Assembly (NCBI RefSeq): GCF_026151205.1
Contig: NC_087076.1
Span: 6,920,902 to 6,984,901 of the forward strand
Reading direction: 5' to 3'
DNA: 64,000 bases
From: Bolinopsis microptera
Taxonomy: Eukaryota; Ctenophora; Tentaculata; Lobata; Bolinopsidae
How positions within the stretch are numbered: the stretch's first letter is position 1; every line of letters starts with the position of its first letter. The translations under genes and the position numbers were made by a program. The notes under the pieces were generated by a model that did not search any database, was not told the origin of the DNA, and saw only the letters and a program-made list of their open reading frames with translations. This document shows, in pieces, positions 14,691 to 35,000 of the stretch.

Positions 14691-15479
14691 GGCACCTTAG
14701 TAAGTAAATAAATAAGTAAACCTGTTAGTCTTCCAATGGTTGTAGATGCGTAGGTGATCAAAAAGATCACCGCTGACTAGCAGTTCTGTGCTCTCACTAT
14801 AAAAGCCAGGGCTGTGAATCGGAGGTACCCCGCTAGTGCCCCCCTGTCAGTACTTAGTCGAACAAGTCGACCTTAGCCTCTCTGCAACAAGTCCTCCTGA
14901 TGCCTCCACGTGGTGAAGACTGGATACTGGACGATGGATGGTGGTGAACTCCAGGCAAGAATCAGGATGGGCGACGGGTAGATAGCTGACCCCCGGAGAG
15001 ACAAGATAGGAACGTCAGTTGTCTCTCGAACTCCTAGCCTCTGAAGAAGAGAGGTGCGGAGCATCAGCTGGAGGTGTTGGTCATTATATCCTCTGACTTT
15101 CCACTACGACCCAAATGATTGGACCACGCTCTGGTGGAAAGGATGACCCCCCATACCCGGGGTAACGGGCAGTCAGGGAGAGGGCTAGCTCCTGCAAAAG
15201 TTTAGCTTATGCTGACACCCTAGCCCCCCCTAGCTCAGGGACAGGAGTGGCTACCTTCGGGTAGTGTCGGAGAAGAAGAAGAAGAAGAAGAAGAAGAATT
15301 CACCACATCATTTACCCTGAGCAGACAGTTCGATTGGTTAAAGTCTGATAAAAAGTTCAACTCAAGTTGATGTTCCTGCGGTTCAAACCCAAATGTTCCG
15401 GTAGCGTGGCTTTGGGAAATGACCATTTGCCACCATGGAGGGGACTCCATGGGGTCATTTAGCTATTTGAAAAACAACT
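14691..15479 (+). mobile_element. Probable 5' non-coding leader of the RTE-like LINE
   Basis: This GC-richer block lies directly upstream of the LINE ORF and includes a (GAA)n run at about 15269-15297. It has no ORF with recognisable motifs. Calling it the element's 5' region rests on its position and its compositional contrast with the flank; the exact left border is not defined. Confidence 0.4.
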
Positions 15480-18400
15480 ATGATGAATTTAAACAGCACT
15501 AGGGTTAAAGCCCCTAACACGAATCTTGTGGAGGGTCGGCAGTTTTATGACTTGGTTGGCTTAAAACCCAATCTGGGAGGGCCAGGCGATGATGTACTGA
15601 CGTACCCAACACAACACAACAGGATAAGTACAGAACCGGAAAAGAAGAGCAGTAATAGTGGCAGCGTTGTGTCGTGTAGTAGGAAAACGTTCATCGGGAC
15701 ACTGAACGTTCGTACTGTTAGGGAACAGTATAAGAGGATAGAGTTAGCATCGCTCTTTCTTGAGAGTAGAGTTGCAGTTTTAGGGGTACAAGAGCACCGG
15801 ATTGTGCATGAGGAGGAGATCAAGATCCAGAGTTTTGAGAAGGGTGTGCACCTGGTGACCACACCTGCTTGGAGAAACACCCGACAAGCTGCTACTGGTG
15901 GAGTTGGGTTTATGCTGACCAAGCAGGCCTACAAAGCAGTGAGTCTCATGAAATCGTTTGGGAAGCGAATTTTTCTCATATCCTTTGATGGAAACCCACG
16001 GCTTACAGTAATAACGGTGTACAGTCCCACTGAAGCAGCATCAAATGAAGAGGCAGAGGACTTTCACGAGGGACTAAGATCTGCACTAGGAGAGGTACCA
16101 GCCCATCATCTGCTAATGGTTGTTGGTGATCTTAACGCCCATCTTAGCAGATTGAATGAGGAGGATTCAGGTTGGTACTGGCATCGAGTATCCAACAGAA
16201 ACGGATCGCTTCTCAGGGATACTTTGTTGGAGGGAAACCTTGAGGCAACTAACCACCGATTCCAGAAACGTCCCGGTAAACTATGGACGTATCTCTCTGA
16301 CGGAACACTGAGCAAGAGTCAGATTGATTACATCCTGATAAGGAAGAAGTGGCGTAACTCAGTCAAGGACACTGTTGTCTCCAATTCTTTTAACTCTCTT
16401 GGGTCGGACCACCGTCTAGTAGTTAGTTCAGTCAAACTCAGCCTGCGAAAGTGCCAGAATGCACCTAGAGTAGTAAGATATGACTACAGACTGCTCAAAG
16501 AGAATAAGGAGTTGCAAGCCTTGTATTCTGTGGAGGTGAAAAACAGATTCTCTATGCTACTGGAGGAAGAATCTAGTGAGCAGAACGATCCCACGATTCA
16601 GTACGGAAAGCTTATGAATGCCGTGAAAGCAACCAATCATAAGTTGCTGAAGCCCATCCCAAGAAGACAACGTAACAACCCCTCCCAAGATCCTAGGGTA
16701 TCGGAGAGGAGGAGAACTCTGTTTCAGGCCAAAGACGCATATCATGAGAATCCTACAGAGGAGAGTAGAGAGGTAGTTAAGGAGTGTAAGGATGCACTTG
16801 CAGTGAGCTACAAAGAGGTTGAGGAGGAGACTCTTGTTTCTCGGATCAGGCGGGCTGAGGATGCTGCTGACAGGTGCAAGAATAAGGAAAGTTGGGACCT
16901 TATTAATGACATAAATGGCAGGAAAAGCAAGCCATGCAGCCTGGTTGATGGAGGTAGTGCAGAGGGGAGATTGAAGAGCTGGAAGGACCACTTCACTAAG
17001 CTCCTGGGTCAACCACCATCTGTACCTGACCAGGAAATAGTTATCCAAACCATCCACCCCCAGCAGGATATAGAGACTGGTCTGTTTTGCAGGGAGGAGT
17101 TAGCGGAGGCGAGGAAGCAGATCAAGGAGGGTAAGGCCTATGGTGATGATGGCATAGCTCCAGAGATTCTCAAAAGAGTGGACATGGACGACCTGATTCT
17201 AGAGTTCTGTAACAGCGCTTTGGTTGATGGAAAAATCCCTGATCAATGGCGGCAACTCAACATCGTGCCTGTGCCAAAGAAAGGAAATCTAACTAAAGTG
17301 GATAACTACAGAGGAATCGCTCTTACGTCCATTGTTAGTAAGACCCTGAATCGTATGATCCTTAACAGAATCAAACCAGCGATGGAGAAAATCCTGAGGA
17401 TCAACCAAAACGGATTTCGGGAGGGACGCAGTACCACCAGCCACATTCTGTGTCTAAGGAGGATCTTGGAGGGGGCTAGAGACAAAAACCTGACCGCCCT
17501 TCTCTTGTTCATCGATTTTAAGAAGGCCTTTGATAGCATTCATAGGGGTATATTGATGAAGATACTCCTGGCATATGGGATACCAGAGCCCATTGTTAGG
17601 CTGATATATGCTATGTACAAGGACACCATGGCACGAGTCATCACGGAGGATGGTCTGACTGAAGCTTTCCTTATACTTGCTGGAGTTATGCAGGGAGATA
17701 CACTGGCGCCCTACCTCTTCGTGATTGTCATTGACTATGTGATGACAACAGCACTTAGAGGCAAAGATCTGGGCTTCACTGTCAACCCCAGAAGAAGCAG
17801 GAGATACCCAGCAGTTAAGATGACAGATGTCGACTTTGCTGACGATCTTGCACTGACAACAGACACCGCAGAGCAAGCGCAAGATCTTCTCCTCAGTGTG
17901 GAGCTGGCTGCTAACTCCGTTGGACTTCACCTCAACGAGAGTAAGACGAAGTACATCAGAGTCAATCTCTCTGAGTCTGACTCTACCGTCATTAAAGCAG
18001 CAAGCGGGCAGGAGATAGAGCAAGTAGACGACTTTGTCTACCTTGGAAGCAGAATAATGAGTGCGGAGAAGGACTTTGATGTTAGGAAAGCAAAGGCATG
18101 GGGGGCCTGTCATCAGTTAAAGACAACCTGGAAGTCTGGAATGCGCAGGGACTTAAAGATCCGTGTCTTCCGAGCAACGGTTGAGCCCGTACTCCTGTAC
18201 GGCTCTGAAGCATGGACGATAAGCCAATCCATGACTAAGCGGATCAATGGATGCTACACTAGAATGCTCCGGATGGCCTTGAACATACGTTGGCCACAAG
18301 TCATCAACAACAGTGATTTATACGGCAACATCCCCAAGCCATCAGCGATGATAGCCTCCAGAAGAATGAGACTGGCTGGACATGTAGCCAGGCATGACGA

Positions 18401-18593
18401 CCTTCTGGCAAACCAACTTCTGTTCTGGGACCCTCAGCATGGAAACAGGAGACCGGGGAGGCCCCACCTTACGTTTCTGGACATGCTAAAGAAGGACACC
18501 AGCCTTTCCTGTGTTGAAGAGATAAGATCTGTTATGCTTGACCGCGACGTGTGGCGAGGAATTGTAGTTGCTCGGACCAAGAAGCCGACTTAA
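15480..18593 (+). CDS. RTE-like non-LTR retrotransposon polyprotein (APE endonuclease + reverse transcriptase), intact ORF
   Basis: One uninterrupted ORF of 1037 codons. The N-terminal apurinic-type endonuclease shows LNVRTV, VQEHR, VVGDLNAHL, SQIDYI and SDHRLV (about residues 75-312). The reverse transcriptase shows FIDFKKAFDSIH (about 677-688), the MQGDTLAPYLF block and the catalytic FADD box (about 784-787), then FVYLGS, LLYGSEAWT and RRMRLAGHVARHD. These blocks and the single ORF fit the RTE group of LINEs, which nick target DNA and prime cDNA there. All catalytic residues I can check are present, so the copy may be young. The clade was assigned by motif style, not phylogeny. Met at 15480 is the first in frame. 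Confidence 0.9.
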   Translation: MMNLNSTRVKAPNTNLVEGRQFYDLVGLKPNLGGPGDDVLTYPTQHNRISTEPEKKSSNSGSVVSCSRKTFIGTLNVRTVREQYKRIELASLFLESRVAVLGVQEHRIVHEEEIKIQSFEKGVHLVTTPAWRNTRQAATGGVGFMLTKQAYKAVSLMKSFGKRIFLISFDGNPRLTVITVYSPTEAASNEEAEDFHEGLRSALGEVPAHHLLMVVGDLNAHLSRLNEEDSGWYWHRVSNRNGSLLRDTLLEGNLEATNHRFQKRPGKLWTYLSDGTLSKSQIDYILIRKKWRNSVKDTVVSNSFNSLGSDHRLVVSSVKLSLRKCQNAPRVVRYDYRLLKENKELQALYSVEVKNRFSMLLEEESSEQNDPTIQYGKLMNAVKATNHKLLKPIPRRQRNNPSQDPRVSERRRTLFQAKDAYHENPTEESREVVKECKDALAVSYKEVEEETLVSRIRRAEDAADRCKNKESWDLINDINGRKSKPCSLVDGGSAEGRLKSWKDHFTKLLGQPPSVPDQEIVIQTIHPQQDIETGLFCREELAEARKQIKEGKAYGDDGIAPEILKRVDMDDLILEFCNSALVDGKIPDQWRQLNIVPVPKKGNLTKVDNYRGIALTSIVSKTLNRMILNRIKPAMEKILRINQNGFREGRSTTSHILCLRRILEGARDKNLTALLLFIDFKKAFDSIHRGILMKILLAYGIPEPIVRLIYAMYKDTMARVITEDGLTEAFLILAGVMQGDTLAPYLFVIVIDYVMTTALRGKDLGFTVNPRRSRRYPAVKMTDVDFADDLALTTDTAEQAQDLLLSVELAANSVGLHLNESKTKYIRVNLSESDSTVIKAASGQEIEQVDDFVYLGSRIMSAEKDFDVRKAKAWGACHQLKTTWKSGMRRDLKIRVFRATVEPVLLYGSEAWTISQSMTKRINGCYTRMLRMALNIRWPQVINNSDLYGNIPKPSAMIASRRMRLAGHVARHDDLLANQLLFWDPQHGNRRPGRPHLTFLDMLKKDTSLSCVEEIRSVMLDRDVWRGIVVARTKKPT

Positions 18594-19430
18594 GTCAGTT
18601 AAGTCAGTAAACCTAGTTAGTAGGTTCAATAGGTTCAAAAGGTAGGTAGTAGTAGGTTTCTCGGCCAGGTGGTGATTATTATTTCAAAATCAGTGTTTAC
18701 ACTTTACAGATAAATATCCATCAGAACAGAAGAAACAACCGAATAATGTGACATAAAAAAACAACTTATTCACAACGAAACAGATCATAATGTCACTTCA
18801 ATATCATTTGATGCAGTATGCACATGTACGTTACCATGCTGTAACTATGCAAATTCCTATTTCTCATCTAATTTGGACGGAACAAAAATCCCTGAATCTA
18901 ATTTTATACAGTTGCATGATCCCTTCTTTATACCCGAACCCCTAAAAACGGTTCACATTCATTTGGAAAGTCACAGAGATCAAATTTCACAGCCACTTAA
19001 ACATTTTACATACAATATCGATTTTACTATGTACATGGTTACAAAATGTATTTCCCAATCTATTTAAAAAACTCTGATACATGAATAAATTTAAAAGAAT
19101 GAAATACGTCTGTTAAAATGTGTTTAAGTTGATAAGGGATCGTTCACATATAACGTAAGCCAAAATAGGGGGACAGATGGCTTTGGAAAATCTTACAATT
19201 ACATTAGTGCAATTTCTACAAAATTGAAAATAGCTGTGTAAAGTGGCTTACATGATAAGCGAACAAACCTTAGCAAACCAAGCGATGAAGGTTGTGCCAA
19301 AATTTCTGGGTTATGAACTTTGAAGAGTTATGAATTATCAAATATTTTACTGTAAAATACTTTCTTGAACGTGATTGGATAAATATCTTATCTTCACAGG
19401 TTTTAAAAGCATATGATGCAAACAATGATT
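18594..19430. other. LINE 3' tail followed by intergenic DNA with a MITE remnant
   Basis: 18594-18690 carries short repeated AAGTCAGT and TAGGTTC words after the LINE stop and is probably its 3' UTR and tail. At about 19136-19275 a block begins GGGATCGTTCACATATAACG and ends with a related inverted sequence (GGCTTACATG...TTCG region). It resembles a small DNA-transposon remnant, and similar end words recur near 42486 and 59141. No gene is seen. Confidence 0.4.
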
Positions 19431-19439
19431 AGTAGACAT

Positions 19440-19690
19440 TGTTTACATGATAATAACAACGTTTACAGTTTACATGATAGAGCATACTTTGCTGGCATGT
19501 TTACATGACAGAGCACACTTTGCTGGCATGTTTACATGATAGAGCACACTTTGCTGGCATGTTTACATGATAGAGCACACTTTGCTGGCATGTTTACATG
19601 ATAGAGCACACTTTGCTGGCATGTTTACATGATAGAGCACACTTTGCTGGCATGTTTACATGACAGAGCACACTTTGCTGGCATGTTTGC
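19440..19690. repeat. 31-bp minisatellite overlapping the 3' end of the TIR/EF-hand gene
   Basis: About eight tandem copies of a unit containing AGAGCACACTTTGCTGGCAT and GTTTACATGAT. The copy nearest the gene encodes, on the minus strand, the last ten or so codons and the TAA stop of the TIR/EF-hand protein. The array seems to have grown out of that coding end. Confidence 0.9.
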
Positions 19691-22600
19691 TTGTAATAGC
19701 TCCCGCCCCGGATTGCTTACTTAAAAAGTGCACGAACTCATCAAACTCCAACGCCCCCGATTGTTTCACATCAAACCGCCTAATCTGTTCAGAAACCAGC
19801 CGTTTAGACATGGGCCTGCCTATCATCTTCAAACAGGACGTGATCTCATCCGGGGACAGTCTGTAGTCCTGACTAATGTCTATCTTACAGAATGCAGTGA
19901 ACAGTTCGTCTAGTTCTGTGCGGCTGATTTGGGGGTGAAGTCGGGTGAGGAGATCGTAGTTTGGTGAGGCTGTCTCCGCTGTGTACACCAAACCTGTTGA
20001 GTAGTTAGCTTCATTAATATAGTAAAGGCTTGAATAGTGAGGAAACTTGGTTATGCCATACACACCAAGTATTTGTGACAAACCTTAGGTATGGCAATCC
20101 GATTATGGCATAGATCCAGAAGTATTACTACACTTCTCGATCTTTCATTCCAAATTTCAAATTTTATGTTCACAAAGATTGTATTTACAAAACAGAAACC
20201 TCCTCGCTCAATGGACCGGAATTTGTCCTCGACTTTCTGCGCGTACACCACGGACCTACAGTCTGCTCCGAGTAGAACTCCTGAGAACGATCTGAAACAA
20301 GAACAGTATATATAAATATATATAATATAGTGTGTACAGCATGGCAAGACCACTAGCATGCAAGCTGTTAAAAGTAGTACGATGTTGTGTCAACGATTGT
20401 GATATTACATTCGACCTACGTCAGTATAAATGAGTTAAAATAGTTATGACTTATTTTGTAATGTGTTGTGGTGGACAAACTGATGTAATATAATAATTAT
20501 AAGTCAACACAGGATATCAAATTTCTAGCTGCTCTTTCGTCGACAATGATGAGGTATAAATATATTCAAATGGTAACTGATCAAAACTGTTACGGTAACC
20601 ATAGCAACAGTTTTGGTTGATTGTTGAAAAGATGTTGAAGTTATCCCTTGTACAATATACTAATGTACCTGTTATCGCCAGACATCATAGCTTTGATGCC
20701 CAAAACAAGGTCGTAAGTCTTAGGATTAACGAAGTACAGTAGAAGTCTAGTTCCACAAACTATCGACTGAGGACTCAGCCGTGCTACCGGTTTGCCGGAC
20801 TCCTCTTGGAGGACTCCACTTGGGACTCTTCTGATATACTCCAAAGCAACTTTGCTCTTAAGTTTCCTCCCAACAGTATCCGTGATAGAAACAAGCCAGG
20901 AACCGTTAATATCACAGATATTAGACCTGGTTTTGGAGAGCTGGAGACGATCTAGCAGCACTTTCAGCGGGTCCAGGTACATCAGCTCAAACTGACCTAC
21001 ATTCTCCGGATCCACGTCAGAGGAAGCAGGCCGGAAGTCAATCCAAGTAGACTGGCTGGTCTCGTGGCTAATCTGATGGGGAGGGTAGGAGGGCTTGTAG
21101 GTGGACTTTACCAGGGGGCGTGGCTTGCTCTGGTCTGTGTGGGGCAGGACAAGTGGTATTATTAGTTTGCCTGAGTCGAATGCTAAGCTGATCTCCTTGG
21201 TGCACATCTCTGATTTGAGGTATTCTTCGGAGAGCAGGCAAAGTTCGCATTTAGCTAGTCGAATAGCGGAGGTGATGTCTGAACTCCAGTTAGCTCCGAT
21301 TTCCATCCGCTGGTCCCTCCAGCACAGCACCTGAAATGTTGTTAAATTTCACAAAATATTGTAGATATGTTTAAATAATGAGCTTTAAGAAGTAAAGAAA
21401 CTTGTGCAACAACAGCATAACCGATAAAGAACAAGCACCTCAACTGATGCATAACAAATAATTTGTTATATTAACAACTTCCTAAAAGTATATTACCTCG
21501 TTGTTCTCCAAGTACATTTGAAGGAGGTCCGCCCAACCACTATCCGTACTTCTGTAGGTAATCATAACATCGTATATTGATGAGTGGAACTGCAGAGCTT
21601 CCTCTTCTAAACTCATTGTTCCTCTCAACAAACAGTTCTCGTCAATAATGAAGAATTCTCGTCTGGTTCTAGCCCCGTATTTAATATCAAACTCGTAGCG
21701 GGAGATTGAGAGATGCGACAGATTTGTTTCCAGCATTTTCCTACGACCCACAAAACTATAATTCTCAATCTTCCCCATGATATCATGAGTGCTCTTACAA
21801 TAAGCTTCAAACGCATCCTGTCCTTCTATCACAGACTCGGTATGCAGCTCTTTATACGACACGTAATCCACATCATTGAACGCTTCAATGTACCTCTCAA
21901 TAAAATCCAGCACATAAGCCTCACAACTCACTCCAATCTTGTCGGCTTCATCAAGTTTCTGAAACCGAGTCTGCAAATAATCGTACACGTACGACAAACA
22001 CCTGGTATTGGCCAGGGAAGCGTACTCGAAACAGATCAGGCTGGATCCTGACATTGATTTCTGGATAACCCCGACCATGGTGCTGAGAACTGGCTTCCTG
22101 TTGACACACCTGGGTATGGTGCAGTAGAACCTACTCCCGTAGAACACCCCGGGCAGGATGTAGTTCCTGTAGTAAACGTCCACTGAGTGTTGTCCTGTTT
22201 TTACAATACCTAACATTTGGTTCTGCTCTTTTACCGTGTATATGCCACTGATTTCATCTATTTCGAGTGTCAAGGTGATTTCCATTTGGATGTTTTGAAC
22301 TCTGTTGATGTAAGTTCCCTGCATGGTTTGACCATCTCTCTCAATAACCAACTCATATTTAGAATCTTCGTTATCAAATGTGAAGGTGCTTTCTTCATTG
22401 TTTACATGTCCTTTGAATTGCTTTGAAGAAACAAAATCATTGATTCCAACAACCCTCCCAGAAACACCGTCAGTTAAAATATAGAGAAGTTTGGGAAAAG
22501 TGAGGTGTTTGACTTTCCCTTTCCTGGCGTCAGCAGCGGCCTCGTTGTATCCACTCTTGAAGTCAACTTTACTGAATGTTCTAACGGACCACATTCCCGA

Positions 22601-24853
22601 TAGAAAGTAGACGGGAGGCTTGTAGTTACTCTTAACTTCCTTGACAAGTGTTTTGAAGAGTAACGAATTCGGATCTAGTGTCATTTTGCCTGTTTGTTTC
22701 AGTCTAGCAAGACAACTTAGTAGAGTTTCTTTCAGGTTCAGATCTTTCCAGAACTTGTCGTTGAATATATTTCGTCGGGCATCATTTGCTATGATAAAGA
22801 ATGGGACGTCTTTAACTGAGATCTTTTTGGCGGTTTCAACGAGGTCAGTATTATCACGGACATGAGCCGACAGGATGAAGCAAACACTTCGGGCAGAATC
22901 CAAATCATTTGCATCACAAGAGATAGGGCCCACTCCCGCTTTCAGAAGATTATATTTCAGTTCTTTCAAGACTTCCTTATCCTCATCAGCTCCTACGATT
23001 AGTACGGGGAAATCTTCAGGTTTCGGGGGAACGTAAGTGAATGAGTTGATGACGGACGTGCGCAAGGACCGTTGTTGAGCGTCAGCTACAAGCTGTAAAA
23101 ACATTTCAGTGTTCATTGTGTCCACTTGAACAGTCTCCCCAACCATCTCACGTTTAGCGTAGAACTTCGTCTTGGGAATTACTGTCACCCCGTTTTTACA
23201 CTTGAAGAAAGAGCCACTAGCCTCAGTGGACCTGTTTCCAGCGTTAAACACTCCCTCGTAGGTTGTACAGGAGCTGGGAGTATTCTGAACGTATAACCAG
23301 AACCGCCGACTAGCCGAATCAAATATCCCTGGATACATTACACCGTGGTGTCCCTTGATATCTGCTAACAGATCCCCGCCTCGCTGCTGGATGATAGTCA
23401 TGTGTCCCTTCTCCCCTTTTAACTCGGAGAGGGTGTCAGTTATCTCGTAAAACCCTGAAACCCCCTCGTTTTCTTGGTCAGCTGACAGTGTACCCACACA
23501 CTCGTACACTTTGTCTCCAACACATGATACCTCGCAGATCTGCCCTTCAAATCGGCTGCCTTTATAGTCCAACACTCCCTTTATCCTCAGCATTATCTGG
23601 AAATATTCCTCCTTCCACCCCTCGTTTTCTTGATTCCACGGTCCACAGTATGCACCAGTGATATCAAGGATCCTGCTGTCAGTGTTAAAGTCACCCTCAA
23701 GTACGATACCTGAGGGAGTACGGCCCCGAACCTTGCCGTCATCATCAGTGTACAAGTACAGTGTCATACATCGGTTATCGTAGAAATTAGAGCAAAAGTC
23801 CCCACTAACAACAACCTTGCAATGCCATATACCACACACAGTACTGAGTTCCACCAAATCAGCTTCACTTCTCTCGGTGTAACTTTTGATCTGTGAAGCC
23901 ATCTCAGTGAAGCTGACCTCCGGGGAATCCACACCGATCCAGTTATACCACTTACTGTCAGCAAGGGAGTAAGCCATGTTGTCAGGGATTCTGTTTTGTC
24001 TGAAAGCGGAACATGTTGGGTGGACTAAAACTTTAATACAAAGTTCGCCGCTGTTAGCAAGTTCAGCACCTCTGGTTAGAAGACGAATGAGCGTGGCGTC
24101 GTAGGAGGCGTTGTCAGTGTAAAGGAGCAGTAATACCCTTGATTTGTGGAGTTCTTCTTCTGAGGTTGTTACTGTCAGCCCAGAAGATTCGAGAAGGATT
24201 TTTAGCCTATCAACAAAGATCTTATCAAAGTTGCAGGTGAGAAGGAAAATGTTATAATCATCGTTGAGAGGCTGTCCACTCCATTGTGGTTTTATATAAA
24301 AGCTGTTCAAATTAGAGATTACCTCGTCCCATTTTTCAGATGTAATGATAGAATCAACTTTCTCGGACAGCTTCTCGAATCCCCCAGAATTTGTATATTT
24401 TCTAATTCCTGGTTCGGGAGAAAGTACTCGGGTATCGACTTTATCACTTTCAGTTGGGATAAACAAATTAGTTTCTTTGGTTTTTTCATTCTCTTCTTTG
24501 GGAGCCAGTGTTATCCATTCAGAAAAATAAGATTTCTTCGTTCCCTTCTTGTAACAAGTAATTTCACATTCTCCAAATTTAGTGCACAAAACAGTTGCAG
24601 TTTTCCACTCCCCAAATAGCTCAGCTTTAACTTTGTCACCCTCGCTTGCGAAGTTGGCGTTTGCATCTTTCGGTCTGAAGAAATTGTCATCCAAATCCTT
24701 GACCTTATCTGCTGGCACTAGTTCAGCAAAGTTTTCTTTTAAGTTTTCGTATTGGATTTTGTACAAGAGCTTTGGTCCAAGTTGAGAGACCACATAGTCG
24801 AATTTTTCGTCACTTTTTATTACATCTCCGACTTTTACCTTCTTTTCTGTCAT
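19656..24853 (-). CDS. Triple-TIR, NTF2-like, EF-hand protein with C-terminal CaaX box
   Basis: Exons, in transcript order: 24853-21497, 21330-20669, 20291-20200 and 19993-19656. Phases agree throughout, giving 1482 residues. Domains (approximate residues): tudor/agenet-like barrel (70-118); degenerate TIR-like 1 (200-280); beta-rich module (340-560); degenerate TIR-like 2 (615-705); beta-rich module (752-930); NTF2/SnoaL-like (980-1080); canonical TIR 3 (1093-1182); third beta-rich module (1260-1375); EF-hands with loops 1409-1420 (DISQDYRLSPDE) and 1445-1456. The protein ends in CSVM, a CaaX prenylation motif. In TIR 3, Glu1165 in TKEISLAFDSGK matches the position of the catalytic Glu of the NAD-cleaving TIR of SARM1. 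TIR 1 and 2 appear to lack it. No signal peptide or membrane helix was seen. Splice agreement is strong; the enzymatic role and the weaker domains are inferred. I recognise no named family with this architecture. Confidence 0.8.
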
Positions 24854-25183: not shown

Positions 25184-28100
25184 TACAAATTCAAATTCAA
25201 ATGGACTGAAGAAAAATGTAAGTATCGCCCGAAAAGATGATGTGACCAAACATGGTCGCTTTAAGAAGATTGCCAAATCGAAATGTACATTCTCCACATC
25301 GTCGATAACTTGCTAATTGCTTATTATCAAACATGTCAATCTTACAAATGTCAACAATCCTAAAATAATTTAGAACCGAAATGTGATCCTTTGTAAGATT
25401 ATATGTCCCAAAAGTCAAATTGACTTGTACTCAAGTATAAAGTCGAACAATTTACTCCAATAACCACGGTCACTAGCAAGTTCTCTCAAATGAAGAATAT
25501 CATCATACGACTGAAGCAAGATGAAACGCTTCCAGAGGTCAACCTTCAGGTGGTGTAGGAGGTTACGTCTGTGAGCCCCGAGTCTACCAACTTCACTACA
25601 CATCTCGACAGCAAAACACAGCGCAGCTTGAGCTGGTGATCTTTCATCGCTCCTCAGTATGTGTCCTAGCATCTTCCACCTAGATAACTCAGCACGCTCA
25701 GACATAGGGGTAGAGTTACTCTGTTTGTAGAGGGTATCTTTGGACATCATACTGCGTGGCCAGCTGACGTTCATGATCTTTCTGAGGTGGTTACGGTGAC
25801 ATGCATGTAGTTTGTCCCAGTACGATTTTGGCATTCCCCAGCAACTAGAGTTATACATGAGGATAGATACTACTTGGGCCTCATAGACCTTCAGCTTCTT
25901 CTGTAGGGGGATCTTACTCTGGCACCAGACCTTCTTGAAGTTCTGGAATGCTACATTGGCTAGCATGATTCTTCTGGTGACATCTTTCCTACTTTCTAGC
26001 AGAGAACCCAATAACTTGCTACTGCACCATTCTTCATTCATTCTAAGGGGTTTACCATCATCCATGACCTCATCTTTCCCAGCTATGTAGACGTGTACAA
26101 ACTCTGTCTTTGATTCATTAATATTCAGATTCCACTCTTTGAACACCTTAGTAGCGATAGGGAGGAGGGCTTCTAGAGCATCTTTGTCTTCACCAAGATA
26201 GTCGATGTCATCAGAGTAGGCATCTTCTTCAGGCATGCCACTAGGGCTTATAGGAGGGGTTGGGCGCAGCGTCACGGCACGCAGGTGGTAGCAGGCACCA
26301 GCTAGAGTGATTGTGAAACAGAGGCCTGAAACACTATCACCTTGGGGTCCTCCATTGGTGCTGATGAATTCAAGGGAGGTAGCGTTGTTGACTCGCACCT
26401 TGATCTTGGTGTTGCTCAGGAGGAATCTCACTAGTCTGATCTCATCTCTTGTGCACCCTGCGTCCTCTAGGAGGTTGAGCACAGTCTGCCTACTGATCGT
26501 ATCGAAGGCACTGGACATGTCTAGGCCCATCTTGTGGAAAGACCACTCTCTTTCTTTTACGATGCTGATCAACATACGGTGACACCATACCAGGTCTCCA
26601 CAGCTTCTCTTCTGCTTGTAGGCAGCTTGCCATGGACCTGTGTAAGCGTCTACCTTTGCTTCAATTCTCCTGAGTGTAATGAGGGATAGCAGCTTACGAG
26701 CACAGTTACATAATGTCAGGGGTCTGAGGCTTTTCAGTTCACCAGGAGTCTTCCCAGGCTTTTGAAGAGGGGTGATGAAACATTCTCCGACAGCATCAAG
26801 GAACAGGTTCTCTTCAAAGCAGGTGTTGATGATTTTGGCGTAATGGACACATAGCGCACTCCCGCCATATTTGAGGAGCTCATTGGGGGTATTGTCAGGT
26901 CCGTTGGCTTTGCCGTTCTTGAGGCGTTTAGCAGCGGTTTTTACCTCATATTCTGTGATAGGGCAGTCGAGGGGAGAAGGGGGACCTTCAAACGGGTCGA
27001 GGGCAGGTTCATCTCCAGTCAGCTGTTCTTCGTACCAATCACGGAGTACTTCAGCTTTAGCGAGGTCTGTACCAATAGGGTACCCATCCTTATTGTGGAC
27101 AACTATAGGCTTTGTCTCTTTGGTCTTAGCTAAGGATCTCACAGCTTCGAACATTTGACGCGTGTCGTCAGTTGATGAAATTTCTTCAGCTAACTGGTCA
27201 GCCTTAGCACACTCTAGCTCCTTCAGTCTCTTTTTGATGTCTTTACCGAGCTTATTTCCCCGTCCTCGCAGTACAGAGCTATCACAGGGCTTGTTGGTGC
27301 TTGCCAGGGCAAGGCGTATATTGTGTCGTTCTGCGACTAGGGCAACAACAGTAGGGTCATTAGAGAAGAAGCACTTATTCTTAGCCTTCCTGTAGCCTAG
27401 GGTCTCAGCAGCTGACTTATGAACTTCACCAAGTACTACTGCAAAGTCCTTGTTGGGATCACCTGAGGGTATTACAGTAGAAAGTCTACTAGCAATGTCA
27501 TGTTCATACGCTCGTTTACAATCGGGGTCTGATGTGAGCCTGCGAGTGTCAAACATTTTAGGACGTTTAGGAGCTTTAGCGTAGAACAAGGGGCGTTTAG
27601 ACAATTCAATCTTACATATTACAAGCCTGTGGTCAGAACTAAACACCATACCGTTGTGCGACCTAGCATCTCTGAGCAGACATTTACTTCTTCTTTTACA
27701 AAGAATATAATCTATCTGAGTAAACACTTTACGCTTTTTACCAGACTGACCTTTGACATTAACCAAACCCTCGTAAGTGGTCCGATGACTCGCACGGTGA
27801 AGGAAGGCAGTATTAGCAGCAAACAGGTCGTTTCTACACATGAAGTTGAGAAGGTAGTGACCGTTATGGTTCCTTTTACCCATACCGTGCCTGCCGACAT
27901 AATCTGACACACCATTTACATAATCTGAGTCATCAAGCTTACCCAGCCTACCGTTGAAATCTCCCATCACAAACAGCTCGTATCTTGAAGGAATGACAAT
28001 AGCTGAACTGACTTGCTTGTACACTTTCCTGACAATTTCTGGTCTGAGTTCTGATTTGGTGTTAGTGGGGCAGTACACATTGACGGCTCTAAACATGACG

Positions 28101-28519
28101 GGTTCACCGTGCTTTACAGGCAATCTGAAATCTATCCACGCAACACGGTCACTGACACGATGATATTGAACAATGCACGGTACTAGCCGCTTTGATACCA
28201 CAAACCCCAGACCTGCATAACAGGCATCCTTTTGTTCAATGATAATCAACTTATTGCCACAGGGTAACATTGCTTCAAATGGCTGAGTGATCTTAGTTTC
28301 TTGAAGGGCTATAACGTCTAATTTATATTGAGTACAGTCACGTCCTAATATATGTTGGTCTACTTCTTTGCTCAGCCCACGAACATTGAATGTTGCAAGG
28401 GCTAGAATGAGTGAGAGAGGGAGCAACTTAGGGACGATGAGTAGAGGGTTAGATGCTGCTGCAGGAGTAATCTGTGTCTCCTTGCTTCTGCCGATGTGCC
28501 TGACGTCATCACTGGTCAT
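25184..28519 (-). mobile_element. Second RTE-like LINE copy, coding region plus 3' tail
   Basis: The element comprises the ORF at 25415-28519 and a minus-strand 3' non-coding segment. That segment ends in a short hexamer repeat, visible on the plus strand as CAAATTCAAATTCAAAT at about 25187-25201. Short tandem-repeat tails are typical of RTE-group LINEs. The 5' border upstream of 28519 is not visible. Confidence 0.6.
25415..28519 (-). CDS. LINE polyprotein (APE endonuclease + reverse transcriptase), intact ORF, lineage distinct from the copy at 15480
   Basis: A continuous 1034-codon ORF. Endonuclease motifs are TFNVRGL, LQETKI, VMGDFNGRLG, TQIDYILCKR and SSDHRLVI (to about residue 298). Reverse transcriptase motifs are DMSSAFDTISR, GGPQGDSVSG and a catalytic YSDD box (about 769-772), followed by LNINESKTEFVH and SILMYNSSCWGM. 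It shares its layout with the plus-strand LINE but has a different active-site box (YSDD instead of FADD) and little visible identity, so two LINE lineages coexist. The active site and nuclease residues look intact. The start is the first Met of the open frame and could lie a little further in. Confidence 0.9.
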   Translation of the reverse strand: MTSDDVRHIGRSKETQITPAAASNPLLIVPKLLPLSLILALATFNVRGLSKEVDQHILGRDCTQYKLDVIALQETKITQPFEAMLPCGNKLIIIEQKDACYAGLGFVVSKRLVPCIVQYHRVSDRVAWIDFRLPVKHGEPVMFRAVNVYCPTNTKSELRPEIVRKVYKQVSSAIVIPSRYELFVMGDFNGRLGKLDDSDYVNGVSDYVGRHGMGKRNHNGHYLLNFMCRNDLFAANTAFLHRASHRTTYEGLVNVKGQSGKKRKVFTQIDYILCKRRSKCLLRDARSHNGMVFSSDHRLVICKIELSKRPLFYAKAPKRPKMFDTRRLTSDPDCKRAYEHDIASRLSTVIPSGDPNKDFAVVLGEVHKSAAETLGYRKAKNKCFFSNDPTVVALVAERHNIRLALASTNKPCDSSVLRGRGNKLGKDIKKRLKELECAKADQLAEEISSTDDTRQMFEAVRSLAKTKETKPIVVHNKDGYPIGTDLAKAEVLRDWYEEQLTGDEPALDPFEGPPSPLDCPITEYEVKTAAKRLKNGKANGPDNTPNELLKYGGSALCVHYAKIINTCFEENLFLDAVGECFITPLQKPGKTPGELKSLRPLTLCNCARKLLSLITLRRIEAKVDAYTGPWQAAYKQKRSCGDLVWCHRMLISIVKEREWSFHKMGLDMSSAFDTISRQTVLNLLEDAGCTRDEIRLVRFLLSNTKIKVRVNNATSLEFISTNGGPQGDSVSGLCFTITLAGACYHLRAVTLRPTPPISPSGMPEEDAYSDDIDYLGEDKDALEALLPIATKVFKEWNLNINESKTEFVHVYIAGKDEVMDDGKPLRMNEEWCSSKLLGSLLESRKDVTRRIMLANVAFQNFKKVWCQSKIPLQKKLKVYEAQVVSILMYNSSCWGMPKSYWDKLHACHRNHLRKIMNVSWPRSMMSKDTLYKQSNSTPMSERAELSRWKMLGHILRSDERSPAQAALCFAVEMCSEVGRLGAHRRNLLHHLKVDLWKRFILLQSYDDILHLRELASDRGYWSKLFDFILEYKSI

Positions 28520-31500
28520 TCCACCTCAATAAATGTAATAGATTTGTAGTGTTGTAATTAGTTTAGTTGCTAATTGCTATGCCGTCAAAATAGATATGAA
28601 TAAGTCAGCTTGGTCCTTTGAAAAAAATAAAAAAAGACGACAGAACTTTAGTGCAATAAATAGCTACAAGCTTATGGCTACAACTAAACAGTAAACATAC
28701 ACGTATAATAAGCAAAATAGCGAAGCGCAATAATTTTCTAAATGAAGCTCTATCTTGTTCGAGACATTGAGCGCTCGATTCGAAAGTAGATTTTTATCGA
28801 ACCTGATTCTCTAATATATTGGTGCTGGGACGCGCGCGCAACTAAAATGACATGTTATTTGGAGCCCACTTATTATTATAATATAAAATGTATACAGTTG
28901 CTTCATAATTTTACCCTTTTTAGACTTGATTGCTATAGTGAAGAAAGCATCGCGCGCTACTTCGAAGAAATTTAGACGAGTACCATCCGTCAAATATTTG
29001 GATCGAGTCAAATTATATTATTATAGCATTGTGGTTGGTTATTCAGATCATATTACATTATTATACATATTAACATTTCTCCTGGAGAGATGATCGAGAT
29101 ATTAAGGCTTGTCCCCTCATACGTGGAATCAGGTTATCAAGTACCGTTGAGTCTTTATGTCTGCAAACTTAATTGAAAATTCAATTGTTGCATCAATCGA
29201 ATTTTCAATTAAGTTTGCGGAGACATATTCAATATTTTTTCGAGGATTATGTAACAAAATTCTTGACATGGAAAATGGCTAGAATAAATAAATATTTAAG
29301 CAGAAATGTTTGCAGTTTGCACATTATATGCACTAGCAGGAACCCGTATAATATAACCCTAAACGGTGTCAAGACTCAAAATACTAAAATGATTATTACC
29401 TATTTAATTGGCGTTTTTGACACCACTTGGGGGTCCAAATTTTCGGCTCTAAAATCATTATTCCTTGGCCAATTTTTTATTTTTTCATGCTGATTTGAAG
29501 GCCATTAAAGCATTTGACCCAGCCAAAAAAGTTCAAGTTGTATATCTTTTACGGTTTTTGCGGAAAGTCGCGTTAAAGTTGATGCCGTGGTGTCAGTAAA
29601 ATGGCACAGATATATATATATATATCGTCTCGCTTTATATATAGTAAGATGGCTTATGGGCCCTCCGGTCCTTAACCTTGTTGTAGCTAGATATATATCA
29701 ACCGACTGATGCTTGATATGACGCTTGAACATGAAGCAAACGGTATATAAAAATTAGAACAATGAATATCATAATCATATCAAACTCCTGAACAAAGGGG
29801 GATCCGGACCCTCCCCCCTAACTTCTTAACGATGATTGTTCATTGTACTTTGGTAGACCGAGTTAGACCGATTATCATGTTTGATGTTGCGAATATGAAA
29901 TATAAGTGAATAGTCGGACAACGCAATGTCGGCTATTATAGTTGACAAAGCAAATCTTTTTTACAGTCTACGCTCTATCCAGTGTACAGTGTATATATGC
30001 CCATGCCTATCTGTAATGGCTTACTCGTAAAACATAAACACTAAAGATGAAATTAAGGATTTATTTCCAGATTTTGCGAATCCCACGCGAATTAATCTCG
30101 CATTTGTGGTGATTTTCATTATGTTTATAATACCTGAGGACTTCATGCATCGTCGCTACTTCATCGTTCATCAAATTTTCTATTGATTGATCGAAATTCA
30201 TGTCACTAGGCAGTAGACACATTTTAATCGAAAAGTAACACAAGATTTTACAGAGTGGAAATTGATATCTTGGTATACAGTAACAATGGTGTTCAGCAGC
30301 GTAAAGTTTGGTTCAAATATTTGAAATGTAATATAAATGTATAATATCCATAAACGTTTAATTTCAAATATCAAAGTTACAAATCGGTGTAATTACAACG
30401 TAAGATCGGTTCATATCAAAATGCAATTCGTGCTCAGTTTCAGCCACTAAAATGCCGATATTATTTCAATTTCTAAACAGCATCACAACGGAGTAATGCC
30501 GCATTATTATTATTAATAATATAATATTAACCATCAAATATAATAAAAATTAAAGCACTGCCTAGATGAATAGCGAAACTTTGAATCCGCGGGATTAAAA
30601 TCTGAGATCATAATCTTAGTAATTCAAATAATCATAACTTTAGGGTACCTTTCAGATATCAATATTGGAGAGAAACATATAAAAATCTGTTGTATTTTTA
30701 TAAGGAGTAAGACTCCTAGTCAAGAAAATACCTATCTTACATCAGCAAATCGTTTCACTGTATCTACATTCTGTAAAGCGTCAAAATTCCAGACAATATC
30801 TAATCCAGACAATATCTAATCCAGACAATATCTAATTCCAGACAATATCTAATTATGATTATTCCGCTCCATCAATATCCATTTATGTCAGATTTCAGGC
30901 GTTTTGCTGCCAGCTATAATAATGATAAAAATTCTCATCAAAATTCTAATAACAATTACATAAACAGTTCTGAGCGGGAAATGATAACCGATCGACAATT
31001 TCGAAGAGAAAAATGTGTACTCAATTGGTACAAATATGTCATTTAGTCATTCACATCTCTGGTGTTGGCGCTAAAGATCGCCTCCATATCATTATCAGCA
31101 TATCTGTCGATGAGGGAAATCATTTCACAAGCTAACTCTAACCCTATAATTCTCACGGGGCAATCTGTCAGACGTTTTAACGGACGTTTCCCAGCCTATC
31201 AAAAAGCCAGCTCCTTTCCAGCCACCAGTGTATTCCTCCCTCAATAACGATAGCCCAATAAAACACCCCGTCTCGGTCATATGATCGGCGGTTTCCCCAT
31301 TCAATAACCTACCGCAGAAGGGAAATAAAATTACTGGCGCGTATCCTGCACAACTAAGCAAGGCTGCCCCGTGAGTGCCCCTTTGGAAACAGAAACAGAT
31401 ATATTAATATCAGGGGGTTATTTCGGGTTTTACTGAGACACTTTTCTAAAACTGTTGGATCCTCGGCCATCACACCCTCTATATTCTGTAACGTCCGTTA

Positions 31501-32083: not shown

Positions 32084-35000
32084 TTACGTACATCTTGTTT
32101 CTACAACAGTCTTCCGACACCGCTCACACCTCATTGCTAGACTGTCGTATACGAATTTGCATTTACAGTCATAGTTCACGTCTTTCTGGGAGTCTAGGTA
32201 AGAGCGGTCGCAACACAAATTGTTGCACGCGTCTGACTCCAGGGATGTGACGCTGCAAATGCGTCCCTGAGTGCCGATACTGCCGACTGCTTCATTCGGT
32301 AAACAAAACTGATCCGGGTTGGTGGACTCCATGTAAATAAGCTCACTCTGGCGCGGCTGTATTCCGTGTAGATCGTACAGTACCCACGTGTCATCACGTC
32401 TAGTGTCCAGCACTCTAGTGGCGTACTTGTACTTGGTTACCAAGTTAGCACCTATGGTTGTCATGGTCGGTATCCTCTGGTAACAGGTTTTTACGGTACA
32501 CGAACCGGAGAGTCCCTGACACTTACATATCGTCTCCATGTTATCTCGCACAGCCTGAAACACGGGTAATCTTATTACCCTTTTTCAAAACACCAATTCA
32601 AAATCAATAGATAAAACCCTTAACGGCTCCCCGAACGGTGAAGCAGTTAAAAGTTATTTCCCAACGTCACGGTTAACCGACTTCCAAGATAAGTGATAAT
32701 CTGTGATATCGTCATTAGACCCATGGAAACGAGTAAACAAGCAACAAGTAGGATTACCAGGGTCCCTGCTCGGTTGTTGTGCCGCTTTATTCTGTCTGGC
32801 ATGGAGTTGGCTTGGTGCGGGCTGTCTACAAACCTCTTTGTTTTGTCTATAACAACTGAAATGTGGTGGGAGATCTTTAATTTTAAAAGGTTATTAACTG
32901 CAGCCACGCCTAAACAATATTGGGCATATCAATCATCACAATACAAATAGATTAATGGTTAGATTGATGTTTAAACTTTACATCTGAAATTCTCCCACAA
33001 CAACCGACAGTAAATCAGATTATGGCACAGTCGATTAGAGCAGGTATTACAGAGTTTAAAACCCACCATTGTCGACTGCATCAGAACAGCCGCCCCAAGT
33101 CCAGTCTGGCTGCGGATCCGGCACATCATTCATCTCCCTACACCCACACATGTAGATATCACCATCAGAACAGGCGTCCACTACGCCCACCATCGCGCTA
33201 GCAGACATCAAGGCGTAGATAAACCCAGTCTCACTCAGATCTGAAACATTTGATTGTCGGTAAACCCGGTAAAAAGTGTGTCGGTAAAGGGCTTGTAAAT
33301 GTCGGGAAACCTGTGAGATGGTAACTCTTTTAATAGTGACATAATATTGATAATAGGTTTGTTGGGTGAATGAATAATGAACTGTTCTCTGTCGGTACTC
33401 TTTGTGGGATCGTATCGGGACTTCAAGGAACAGTTCCGCGTCGGTAACTCTAAACTGTAAACAAGGATATCATCTCTCCAATATAAGGCTCCATATCAGT
33501 GTCATACGTATTATGTAAGACTAACAAATTCGTTACTACATAGATCTAAGATCATCCTTTATCCCAGATATCGTATGTCTATCAGACCCCTCCTTAGTTG
33601 AAAGTATGATTGTTTAGTCTGATTGTGAAGGCTGGAGGCGGGATTTTAGTAGAACAGACTGCCAAATCAGTCGCTGATAAGCAGTTACCTCGAGAAGCAA
33701 TAACCATAGCCGTAATAATCGCTTTCAGGTTGTCACAGAGGCTCTGCAATCTGCTGGCGTCGTGTCAAAGGGAGTGAATAATATCTCGGCTGGCAAAGAA
33801 GCCAAACTTTTGTCTCGGTTAAAAAGAGAAGGGGTTCGCACTTGTTAGAAGAGAGTAATGGAGTATGGATCTAGGCTAATGTCTCTGAACACCAACGTCC
33901 TGGATTAACCAAATGCCGCACTTCTTTGTGCACAATCGACCACAAATTTGATGATTTGGTGCTGTAATCGAGAAAGAGGCCTAGCTCTTTCGTCTTAACC
34001 TTGGATAATTTGTCACCACCGGCCCTAGCTAATTCACCTCTAAGTTACAGTTTACGTTGGTTCACGTCGCGCGCGCTCCAGAATTTAGCAAATGCGCACA
34101 TTTTCGCCATAATTTGGTAAACGCGCGTTACGGCTAGCACAGCAAATTACTCTAAATGTCCAAGGTTGCCGGTTGCATGGATTACTTTAGACTTAGAGTG
34201 GTATTAAATAGGTGAAGTTACGAGAATGTGCGGCTTCGGCTAAATTCCAGGTACATTCTTCCGCTCCGCATCAGCGGGGGGAGAATGACGTCACGAAATG
34301 AGCCCATCGTGTAAAGGGTGACCTGTTGCAGGTGAAAGGGAGATGTTACCGGACCCGGTCACTGCAAAGCGCGGGGCTGTCAGATATAAGCGGAAATACA
34401 AGTTCTGTGTAGCCACTCCCCTGTCCAGACAATATACACACTTAGTGTCAAATACCTTGAGAGAAATTAAAAGTAAATTTAGTGCCCCCTAAGAAAGTGG
34501 CGTGGATAATTCGGGTCTTGCGGAGTGACGGCTGAGTCCCCTCGCTCACCGTAAGAGAGAGAAGCGGTTTAATCAGAGATTGGTTAGGGTGTACAGCGAC
34601 ACCAGATTAATTGTCTGTGTACAGGCCCACAGGCTTCCCTCTTCAGGCCTCCCTACACTTTAAAGTTTTAACCGCAGCAATACGCCACCTCAGAGATACA
34701 GGCCTCCTGGCTCCGCCCATACCCTAATTTACTTTTTCCCTCCTACCAACAACATTCCGCCAATTTTTGGAGACACCAGGGTTCACAATTTTAGAGAAAG
34801 GGGATATTTCTTGCGCAACTGCCTACTTTCGCTTGGAACAAAGGCTTATTGAAACTGTGACGGTAGCTGCACTAGATCTCTTACTATCAAAACAACTCTA
34901 AATACATCGCTCACCAATGCTGTTATTATGAAGAAGAATGCACTGCATACCAGAAATTATCTTTGCCGTGCAGCAATCAAAACTTGATGGATTTTAGTGT

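What the first reader, a model, noticed from the sequence alone, without database searches (positions are those of the whole stretch)
19656..24853. Predicted protein with three TIR-like domains, an NTF2-like segment, EF-hands and a CaaX box
Seen: four exons with agreeing splice phases give one 1482-residue frame. Three TIR-like domains each precede a beta-rich module. Only the last TIR keeps a Glu (1165) at the spacing of SARM1's catalytic Glu, 13 residues before the Pro of the following strand. Two EF-hand loops and CSVM end the protein. Known: SARM1-type TIR domains cleave NAD+, EF-hands bind calcium, and CaaX boxes are prenylated. Inference: a membrane-tethered, calcium-responsive TIR enzyme with two pseudo-TIRs, possibly in innate defence or cell death. 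I know of no described family with this layout.
Basis: partly seen in the sequence, partly recalled or inferred. Interest (0 to 1): 0.88.

Follow-up and report, generated by a model that had tools for sequence, protein, structure and literature searches.

The report
Duplicated comb-jelly TIR gene with EF-hands

Summary
The gene is real: four exons give one 1,482-residue frame. A second copy 66.7 kb away differs at 60 of 4,449 coding bases: 52 silent and 8 replacement codons, no coding indel, dN 0.0023, dS 0.056. The EF-hand exons are thus constrained as protein too. One TIR (residues 1096-1219, E 2.7e-18) and an EF-hand pair are secure. TIR-like region 1 is weakly supported (2 of 300 shuffles score as high), region 2 is not (71 of 300); the NTF2-like and beta-module labels found no support. 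The CSVM tail (CSIM in the other copy) sits in the first unit of a 31-bp minisatellite found only at these two genes. Thirteen chromosome-size contigs suggest a ctenophore. A 2025 Mnemiopsis paper already lists EF-hands among domains drawn with ctenophore TIR_2 proteins (legend). So: a new variant of a known ctenophore TIR_2 kind. A calcium-tuned, membrane-tethered TIR signalling protein is plausible but untested; NAD+ cleavage rests on one Glu that TLR2 shares.

The parts
21497..24853 (-). exon 1, residues 1-1119; ATG at 24853, in-frame TAA two codons upstream
   Evidence: 32 silent and 6 replacement codons between the two copies
20669..21330 (-). exon 2, most of the confirmed TIR and start of the third beta-rich part
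   Evidence: 12 silent and 1 replacement codon
20200..20291 (-). exon 3 (92 bases)
   Evidence: 2 silent and 0 replacement codons, few changes, so weak on its own
19656..19993 (-). exon 4, EF-hand pair, tail and stop
   Evidence: 6 silent and 1 replacement codon
24500..24853 (-). N-terminal part (residues 1-118), looks by eye like two small Tudor/SH3-like units
   Evidence: only sub-threshold matches, DUF7041 E 0.034 and Tudor_4 E 0.066; 10 of 40 shuffles reach its score against Tudor-like proteins of this genome; inference
23864..24283 (-). TIR-like region 1 (residues about 191-330)
   Evidence: no Pfam match; profile score 22.0, reached by 2 of 300 shuffles, residues 201-233 aligned; 1 of 150; 15 of the 154 shuffles that got a score, of 200 made,
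22619..23026 (-). TIR-like region 2 (residues about 610-745), fold not shown
   Evidence: no Pfam match; 71 of 300 shuffles score as high; 1 of 150; 17 of 165 scored, of 200 made,
   Evidence: no NTF2-type family in the Pfam scan, no PDB sequence match up to E 10
21031..21574 (-). confirmed TIR domain (residues 1094-1219), split by intron 1
   Evidence: Pfam TIR_2 E 2.7e-18, 67 bits, cut-off 28; TIR 23.4 bits, cut-off 21.3; PDB sequence hits RPV1, AT1G72930, TLR2, RUN1, Cat1
21193..21195 (-). codon of E1165, in the column of the catalytic Glu of active TIRs
   Evidence: aligns with RPV1/RUN1 CxxE and also with TLR2 CKYE; Glu in 9 of 10 aligned TIRs of this genome, this one included
19722..19910 (-). 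EF-hand pair, residues 1399-1461
   Evidence: EF-hand_7 33.5 bits, cut-off 30, scanned apart, 28.1 in the full-length scan; best PDB sequence hit calcium-binding protein 4, 1.8e-12
19659..19670 (-). CSVM, CaaX-like end; CSIM in the second copy
19468..19684 (-). 31-bp minisatellite, 7 units; the first unit encodes the last 8 residues and the stop
   Evidence: in the whole genome found only at the two gene copies, 14 units, up to 3 mismatches

Best explanation
This is a functional nuclear gene, apparently in a recent tandem duplication, of a ctenophore-like animal. It belongs to the TIR_2 repertoire that ctenophores are reported to have in place of Toll-like receptors. It most likely works as a cytosolic TIR signalling protein: the large N-terminal part (residues 1-1090) regulates or senses, the single confirmed TIR is the effector and acts when several copies come together, the EF-hand pair tunes it by calcium, and the C-terminal CSVM/CSIM is prenylated and holds it at a membrane. 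Shown: gene model, protein-level constraint, TIR, EF-hand pair, the tail in both copies. Inferred: calcium binding, prenylation, self-association, immune role, any NAD+ cleavage, and the organism.
For: Frame and splice sites. 52 silent against 8 replacement codons between copies, omega about 0.04, splice sites kept, indels only outside coding sequence. TIR_2 and EF-hand matches. Tail CSVM/CSIM in both copies. E1165 in the catalytic column. 22 TIR_2 matches in this genome, two of them this gene and its copy, several in frames with another kind of module (by eye). The ctenophore M. leidyi has 15 TIR2 genes, four of them up-regulated on re-exposure to Vibrio coralliilyticus (PMC11797021, abstract, passages and part 1 of section 6).
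Against: No transcript, protein or assay evidence. In this genome exons 1 and 4 match only the two copies and exon 2 besides them only the C3 pair at E 0.18 and 0.36; no relative was found in prokaryote genomes or viral contigs, and no animal collection was available. EF loop 2 has Lys at position 3. The organism is inferred; against it, the Mnemiopsis paper did not detect the classical TIR family PF01582 in any of three ctenophores, while it passes its cut-off here. In M. leidyi three of the four responding TIR2 genes are TIR-only and the fourth has FN3 repeats, so none was reported with EF-hands. Silent sites differ more between the copies (dS 0.056) than introns and 5' flank (30 mismatches in 1,162 aligned columns, gaps included), which I cannot explain.
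Confidence: 0.5

Rival explanations
1. Scaffold reading: the TIR is a non-enzymatic adaptor like those of TLR4 and MyD88, and the protein works by TIR-TIR contact only.
For: The CxxE Glu also aligns with TLR2; TLR4 and MyD88 TIRs lack NADase activity (PMC7282519, passages); Met1161 at the position of SARM1 W638 (PMC8266388, passages); PF01582, the classical TIR family, rings in this genome at E <= 0.1 only in this gene pair and two C9 places.
Against: The best family is TIR_2 rather than TIR; PADLOC matches are to bacterial defence TIRs (SAVED_TIR 6.6e-06, ThsB 0.0015) and the best NCBIfam match is to a bacterial TIR-like protein far below its cut-off (FxsC_Nterm, 21.9 against 130 bits).
Confidence: 0.35
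2. Full first-reader reading: a calcium-switched, farnesyl-anchored TIR NADase held in check by two catalytically dead TIR domains.
For: E1165 at SARM1 spacing; TIR-like 1 weakly resembles a TIR over residues 201-233 (2 of 300 shuffles); EF-hands and CaaX-like tail.
Against: TIR-like 2 unsupported (71 of 300); no structure prediction available; one Glu does not prove an enzyme.
Confidence: 0.12
3. Two genes: exons 1-2 read through to the stop at 20641 (protein without EF-hands), and exons 3-4 belong to another transcript.
For: Exon 2's frame stays open past the donor and ends at 20641; the exon 3 donor GTTTCT looks weak (by eye).
Against: Splice sites and phase kept in both copies; exon 3 has 2 silent and 0 replacement codons, exon 4 has 6 and 1; no other exon-4-like sequence in the genome at E <= 1e-4.
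Confidence: 0.07
4. The two copies are two haplotypes wrongly laid in tandem in the assembly, not a duplication.
For: A few per cent difference, within what two alleles of a marine invertebrate can show (general knowledge); one copy lacks two LINE insertions.
Against: Both lie in one 23.6-Mb contig in the same orientation; identity falls to 84-87% on one side of the block, more than expected between alleles. Either way silent changes exceed replacements, so the constraint argument stands.
Confidence: 0.25

Closest known systems
Ctenophore TIR_2 (PF13676) proteins of Mnemiopsis leidyi
   Same: TIR_2 domain with varied partner domains; EF hand listed among the partners (PMC11797021, Fig. 3a legend); no LRR partner reported
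   Different: The figure was not seen, so number of TIRs, tail and exon layout of the Mnemiopsis TIR2/EF-hand protein are unknown; no orthologue sequence could be compared. That paper found no PF01582 in three ctenophores; this gene passes the PF01582 cut-off
SARM1
   Different: No ARM or SAM family in the Pfam scan of 1,482 residues; EF-hands instead; Met at the W638 position
Bacterial defence TIRs (ThsB, SAVED-TIR)
   Same: TIR domain matches these profiles weakly
   Different: No PADLOC match in the 1,118-residue exon-1 protein; eukaryotic introns; EF-hands
TIR+HEAT-like protein pair of the same genome (C3:639982, C3:652706)
   Same: Highest identity, 25% and 24%, among the nine TIRs of this genome aligned with it; only other matches to the exon-2 protein at E <= 1 (0.18 and 0.36)
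   Different: TIR first, then HEAT-like repeats (by eye); no EF-hand part seen in the frame

Membership tests
TIR_2 (PF13676) | profile match over the curated cut-off | tested here: met
   67 bits, cut-off 28, residues 1096-1219
TIR_2 (PF13676) | further TIR domains at 191-330 and 610-745 | tested here: inconclusive
   No Pfam match; 2 of 300 and 71 of 300 shuffles reach the score; fold prediction switched off
TIR NADase (SARM1 type) | catalytic Glu in place | tested here: met
   E1165, alignments; also present in TLR2, so not diagnostic
TIR NADase (SARM1 type) | Trp four before the Glu (SARM1 W638; a SARM1 feature, not shown to be needed in all TIR NADases) | tested here: not met
   Met1161; none of 10 TIRs of this genome has Trp there; W638 effect from PMC8266388 passages
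TIR NADase (SARM1 type) | NAD+ cleavage | not testable with these tools
   needs an assay
SARM1 family | ARM and tandem SAM domains | tested here: not met
   only TIR and EF-hand families in the Pfam scan at E <= 10
EF-hand proteins | paired EF-hand profile over cut-off | tested here: met
   EF-hand_7 33.5 bits, cut-off 30, when scanned apart; 28.1, under cut-off, in the full-length scan
EF-hand proteins | two calcium-coordinating loops | tested here: inconclusive
   Loop 1 DISQDYRLSPDE fits; loop 2 DVKQSGALEFDE has Lys at position 3 (pattern recalled)
Prenylated CaaX proteins | C-a-a-X at the C-terminus | tested here: met
   CSVM and CSIM in the two copies; chance of such an end about 0.1% from the protein's composition
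Prenylated CaaX proteins | actual prenylation | not testable with these tools
   needs an assay
NTF2-like superfamily | profile match | tested here: not met
   no NTF2/SnoaL family in the Pfam scan at E <= 10, filters on; no PDB sequence match at E <= 10; a fold without sequence likeness would be missed

The most novel reading that the evidence does not exclude
A calcium-switched, prenyl-anchored TIR NADase in an early-branching animal, in which two degenerate TIR domains in the same chain hold the active one in check. TIR products of NAD+ could raise calcium, which the EF-hands would read back as a feedback loop.
Probability: 0.1. Interest if true: 0.78.

Novelty: new variant of a known kind. 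Interest (0 to 1): 0.45.

Why it matters
Ctenophores are reported to lack Toll-like receptors but to keep TIR_2 proteins in unusual layouts (PMC11797021). A TIR protein with its own calcium-sensing and membrane-anchoring parts would show how early animals may have wired TIR signalling to calcium without receptors. The gene pair gives evidence that the 1,482-residue frame is kept by selection, so it is worth expressing and assaying.

Tried and rejected

Profile tests of TIR-like 1 and 2. hmmsearch with 9 TIRs of this genome: 15 of 154 and 17 of 165 scored shuffles (200 made of each) reach the score. hhalign with the same 9: 1 of 150 each. hhalign with the 9 plus 4 bacterial TIRs: 2 of 300 and 71 of 300. 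TIR-like 1 against TIR-like 2: 9 of 60; TIR-like 1 and 2 against the twin-TIR protein of C7/C11: 23 of 40 and 18 of 40. I therefore call region 1 weak and region 2 unsupported; the favourable value for region 2 did not survive the larger profile. PDB sequence searches with the two regions gave nothing of TIR kind: best E 0.7 and 0.91.

Beta modules as repeats of one kind: mod1a-mod1b 0 of 60 shuffles, the four other module pairs tested 13 to 46 of 60; not claimed. By eye they start with a G-x-W motif that recalls lipocalin-like barrels (recall); no search supports it. mod2 against the twin-TIR protein gave 0 of 40, one of eight pieces so tested, too little to claim.

Shared N-terminal units between this protein and the twin-TIR proteins: 10 of 40 shuffles, not supported.

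Taxon tests: no COX1 match in the assembly; three DIOX_N matches, not diagnostic. Relatives in prokaryote genomes, viral contigs and phages: none (exon 1; the C3 TIR; the confirmed TIR). Papers: TIR, lipocalin and ctenophore together, none held; TIR domain, EF-hand, invertebrate and TIR domain-containing proteins together, one coral paper, listing only; TIR domain, EF-hand, NADase and calcium together, four papers, all on plants by title; a wider search listed 12 of 132 papers, none read for this except PMC11797021.
Full report
Where it is. The window is part of a 264.65-Mb animal assembly of 232 contigs, at C5:6920902-6984901. Contigs C1-C13 add up to 258,070,895 bases, 97.5% of the whole, and C14 has 198 kb (lengths; the sum is mine); the other 218 contigs were not looked at but share under 6.6 Mb. 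Thirteen chromosomes fit a ctenophore: Bolinopsis microptera has 13 chromosome-scale scaffolds holding 97.23% of its bases (PMC10232365, passages), and Mnemiopsis leidyi has 13 chromosomes and 247.97 Mb (PMC11797021, abstract). This is my inference; no tool named the organism. Against it, the Mnemiopsis paper detected no PF01582 in three ctenophores, Bolinopsis included, while this gene passes the PF01582 cut-off (23.4 against 21.3 bits; 28.9). A Wnt exon at 32084-32584 marks an animal. COX1 was not found.

The gene model. Exons 24853-21497, 21330-20669, 20291-20200 and 19993-19656 on the minus strand join at GT..AG sites to 4,449 bases, 1,482 residues and a stop. An in-frame TAA two codons before the ATG fixes the start, unless an upstream exon is joined right before the ATG.

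Protein-level constraint. The same gene lies a second time in the same orientation 66,677 bases away. An alignment that allows gaps gives equal exon lengths, no coding indel, kept splice sites, 60 base differences (38, 13, 2 and 7 in exons 1-4), dN 0.0023 and dS 0.0557. Changed codons are 32 silent and 6 replacement in exon 1, 12 and 1 in exon 2, 2 and 0 in exon 3, 6 and 1 in exon 4. Introns and 5' flank carry gaps and 30 mismatches in 1,162 aligned columns, fewer per site than the silent coding sites, which I cannot explain. By piece, the N-terminal 190 residues (1 silent, 1 replacement) and TIR-like 1 (3 and 1) have too few changes to judge alone, while TIR-like 2 (10 and 0) and the confirmed TIR (13 and 1) are clearly constrained. 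This is the best evidence that EF-hand exons 3-4 are coding and read in the proposed frame; it does not prove that they are joined to exons 1-2.

Domains. Pfam finds TIR_2 at 1096-1219 (E 2.7e-18, 67 bits, cut-off 28) and TIR over its cut-off; the EF-hand pair at 1399-1461 is just under cut-off in the full-length scan (28.1 against 30) and over it when scanned apart (33.5). Of ten pieces scanned apart, the confirmed TIR not among them, only the EF-hand piece has matches over a cut-off; six have no match and three only sub-threshold ones counting the N-terminal and NTF2-like pieces, as follows: N-terminal DUF7041 and Tudor_4, NTF2-like Glyco_hydro_49 (in fact seven pieces without any match, two with sub-threshold matches, one EF-hand). 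Closest PDB sequences to the TIR are plant RPV1 (E 2.2e-4), AT1G72930, TLR2, RUN1 and Cat1. PADLOC gives weak matches to bacterial defence TIRs (SAVED_TIR 6.6e-06, ThsB 0.0015).

The other two 'TIRs'. A scan of 150-residue pieces of the whole protein with a profile of 13 TIRs (9 of this genome, 4 bacterial; the confirmed TIR of this gene left out) gives 82.9 at 1081-1230, 22.0 at 181-330 and 13.4 at 601-750, against 9 to 15 in pieces away from regions 1 and 3. Region 1 aligns over residues 201-233 only, in the register of the first strand, first helix and second strand (by eye); 2 of 300 shuffles score as high. For region 2 it is 71 of 300. Other tests were mixed (see Tried and rejected).

Catalysis. 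E1165 lies 13 residues before P1178 and falls in a column with Glu in 9 of the 10 aligned TIRs of this genome, itself included. The same column holds Glu in RPV1 and RUN1, but also in TLR2, and TLR4 and MyD88 TIRs are reported without NADase activity (PMC7282519, passages). Met1161 stands where SARM1 has W638, one of the residues whose mutants lose about 100- to 400-fold in kcat and which the authors link to multimerisation (PMC8266388, passages); none of the 10 TIRs has Trp there. A 2026 preprint reports an amoeba TIR (TirD) that oligomerises and is toxic in yeast independently of the Glu (PMC13142454, passages). So the Glu alone does not make an enzyme, nor would its absence exclude function. 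TIR-like 2 has a Glu (E673) 11 residues before P684 (sequence), so 'only the last TIR keeps a Glu' holds for exact spacing only.

The tail. CSVM sits in the first of seven 31-bp units; that unit encodes the last 8 residues and the stop. The unit occurs 14 times in the genome, all at the 3' ends of the two copies (up to 3 mismatches). The simplest reading is that the array grew out of the coding end itself. Each unit carries the same codons up to the stop, so loss or gain of units would leave the protein's end nearly unchanged. The second copy reads CSIM; units with GTC (Val) and ATC (Ile) occur in both arrays, so the Val/Ile difference may come from unit turnover.

Relatives. In this genome exon 1 (E <= 10) and exon 4 (E <= 1e-4) match only the two copies; the exon-2 protein also matches the TIR+HEAT-like pair on C3 at E 0.18 and 0.36. 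TIR_2 has 22 matches in the genome (a lower bound by the tool's own note). Frames read show TIR plus HEAT-like repeats, twin TIRs between Tudor-like units, TIR with trefoil-like repeats and TIR with a proline-containing repeat (labels by eye, not tested). No relative turned up in prokaryote genomes, viral contigs or phages. No animal sequence collection was on hand, so absence elsewhere in animals is not shown.

Literature. The Mnemiopsis paper reports 15 TIR2 genes, none combined with LRR, and names 'Efh, EF hand domain' among domains in the TIR2 part of Fig. 3 (legend; LRR passage). Four TIR2 genes rose after re-exposure to Vibrio coralliilyticus; three are TIR-only and one has FN3 (passages). 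The figure and supplements were not seen.

Verdict. A real and constrained gene with one certain TIR, an EF-hand pair and a CaaX-like end, in a known ctenophore kind of TIR_2 protein with an unusual layout. The enzyme, calcium and membrane claims are reasonable and testable, not shown.

Noticed in passing
window about 14730-18599 and 25322-28566: Two LINE-like elements with long open frames (endonuclease plus reverse transcriptase) flank the gene and are missing from the second copy; the aligned flanks overlap by 22 and 12 bases there, as target-site duplications would. They probably inserted after the copies parted.
   Followed up: partly
window 19468-19684: A 31-bp minisatellite that seems to have grown out of a gene's own C-terminal codons and stop, found nowhere else in the genome at up to 3 mismatches.
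   Followed up: yes
G000:C11:1905878-1906630 and C7:9884414-9885175 (L039, L040): Two open frames of 743 and 776 residues, each with two TIR_2 matches between Tudor-like units (by eye).
   Followed up: partly
G000:C1:21994536 (L046): A TIR at the start of an open frame of 2,311 residues; the first 900 residues, all that was printed, go on with an ASTVPTQLVP-type repeat.
   Followed up: no
G000:C5:6850902-6866011 (L011, L012): At least 15 kb of tandem satellite next to the second gene copy.
   Followed up: no
window 19994-20199: Intron 3 has a weak-looking donor (GTTTCT; GTTTGG in the second copy), and in the second copy the bases GTTTGG follow both the donor and the acceptor junction, like a short direct repeat around the intron. 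The intron matches only the two gene copies in this genome.
   Followed up: partly
window 32084-32584: A Wnt exon lies inside the duplicated block, so part of a Wnt gene is probably duplicated too.
   Followed up: no
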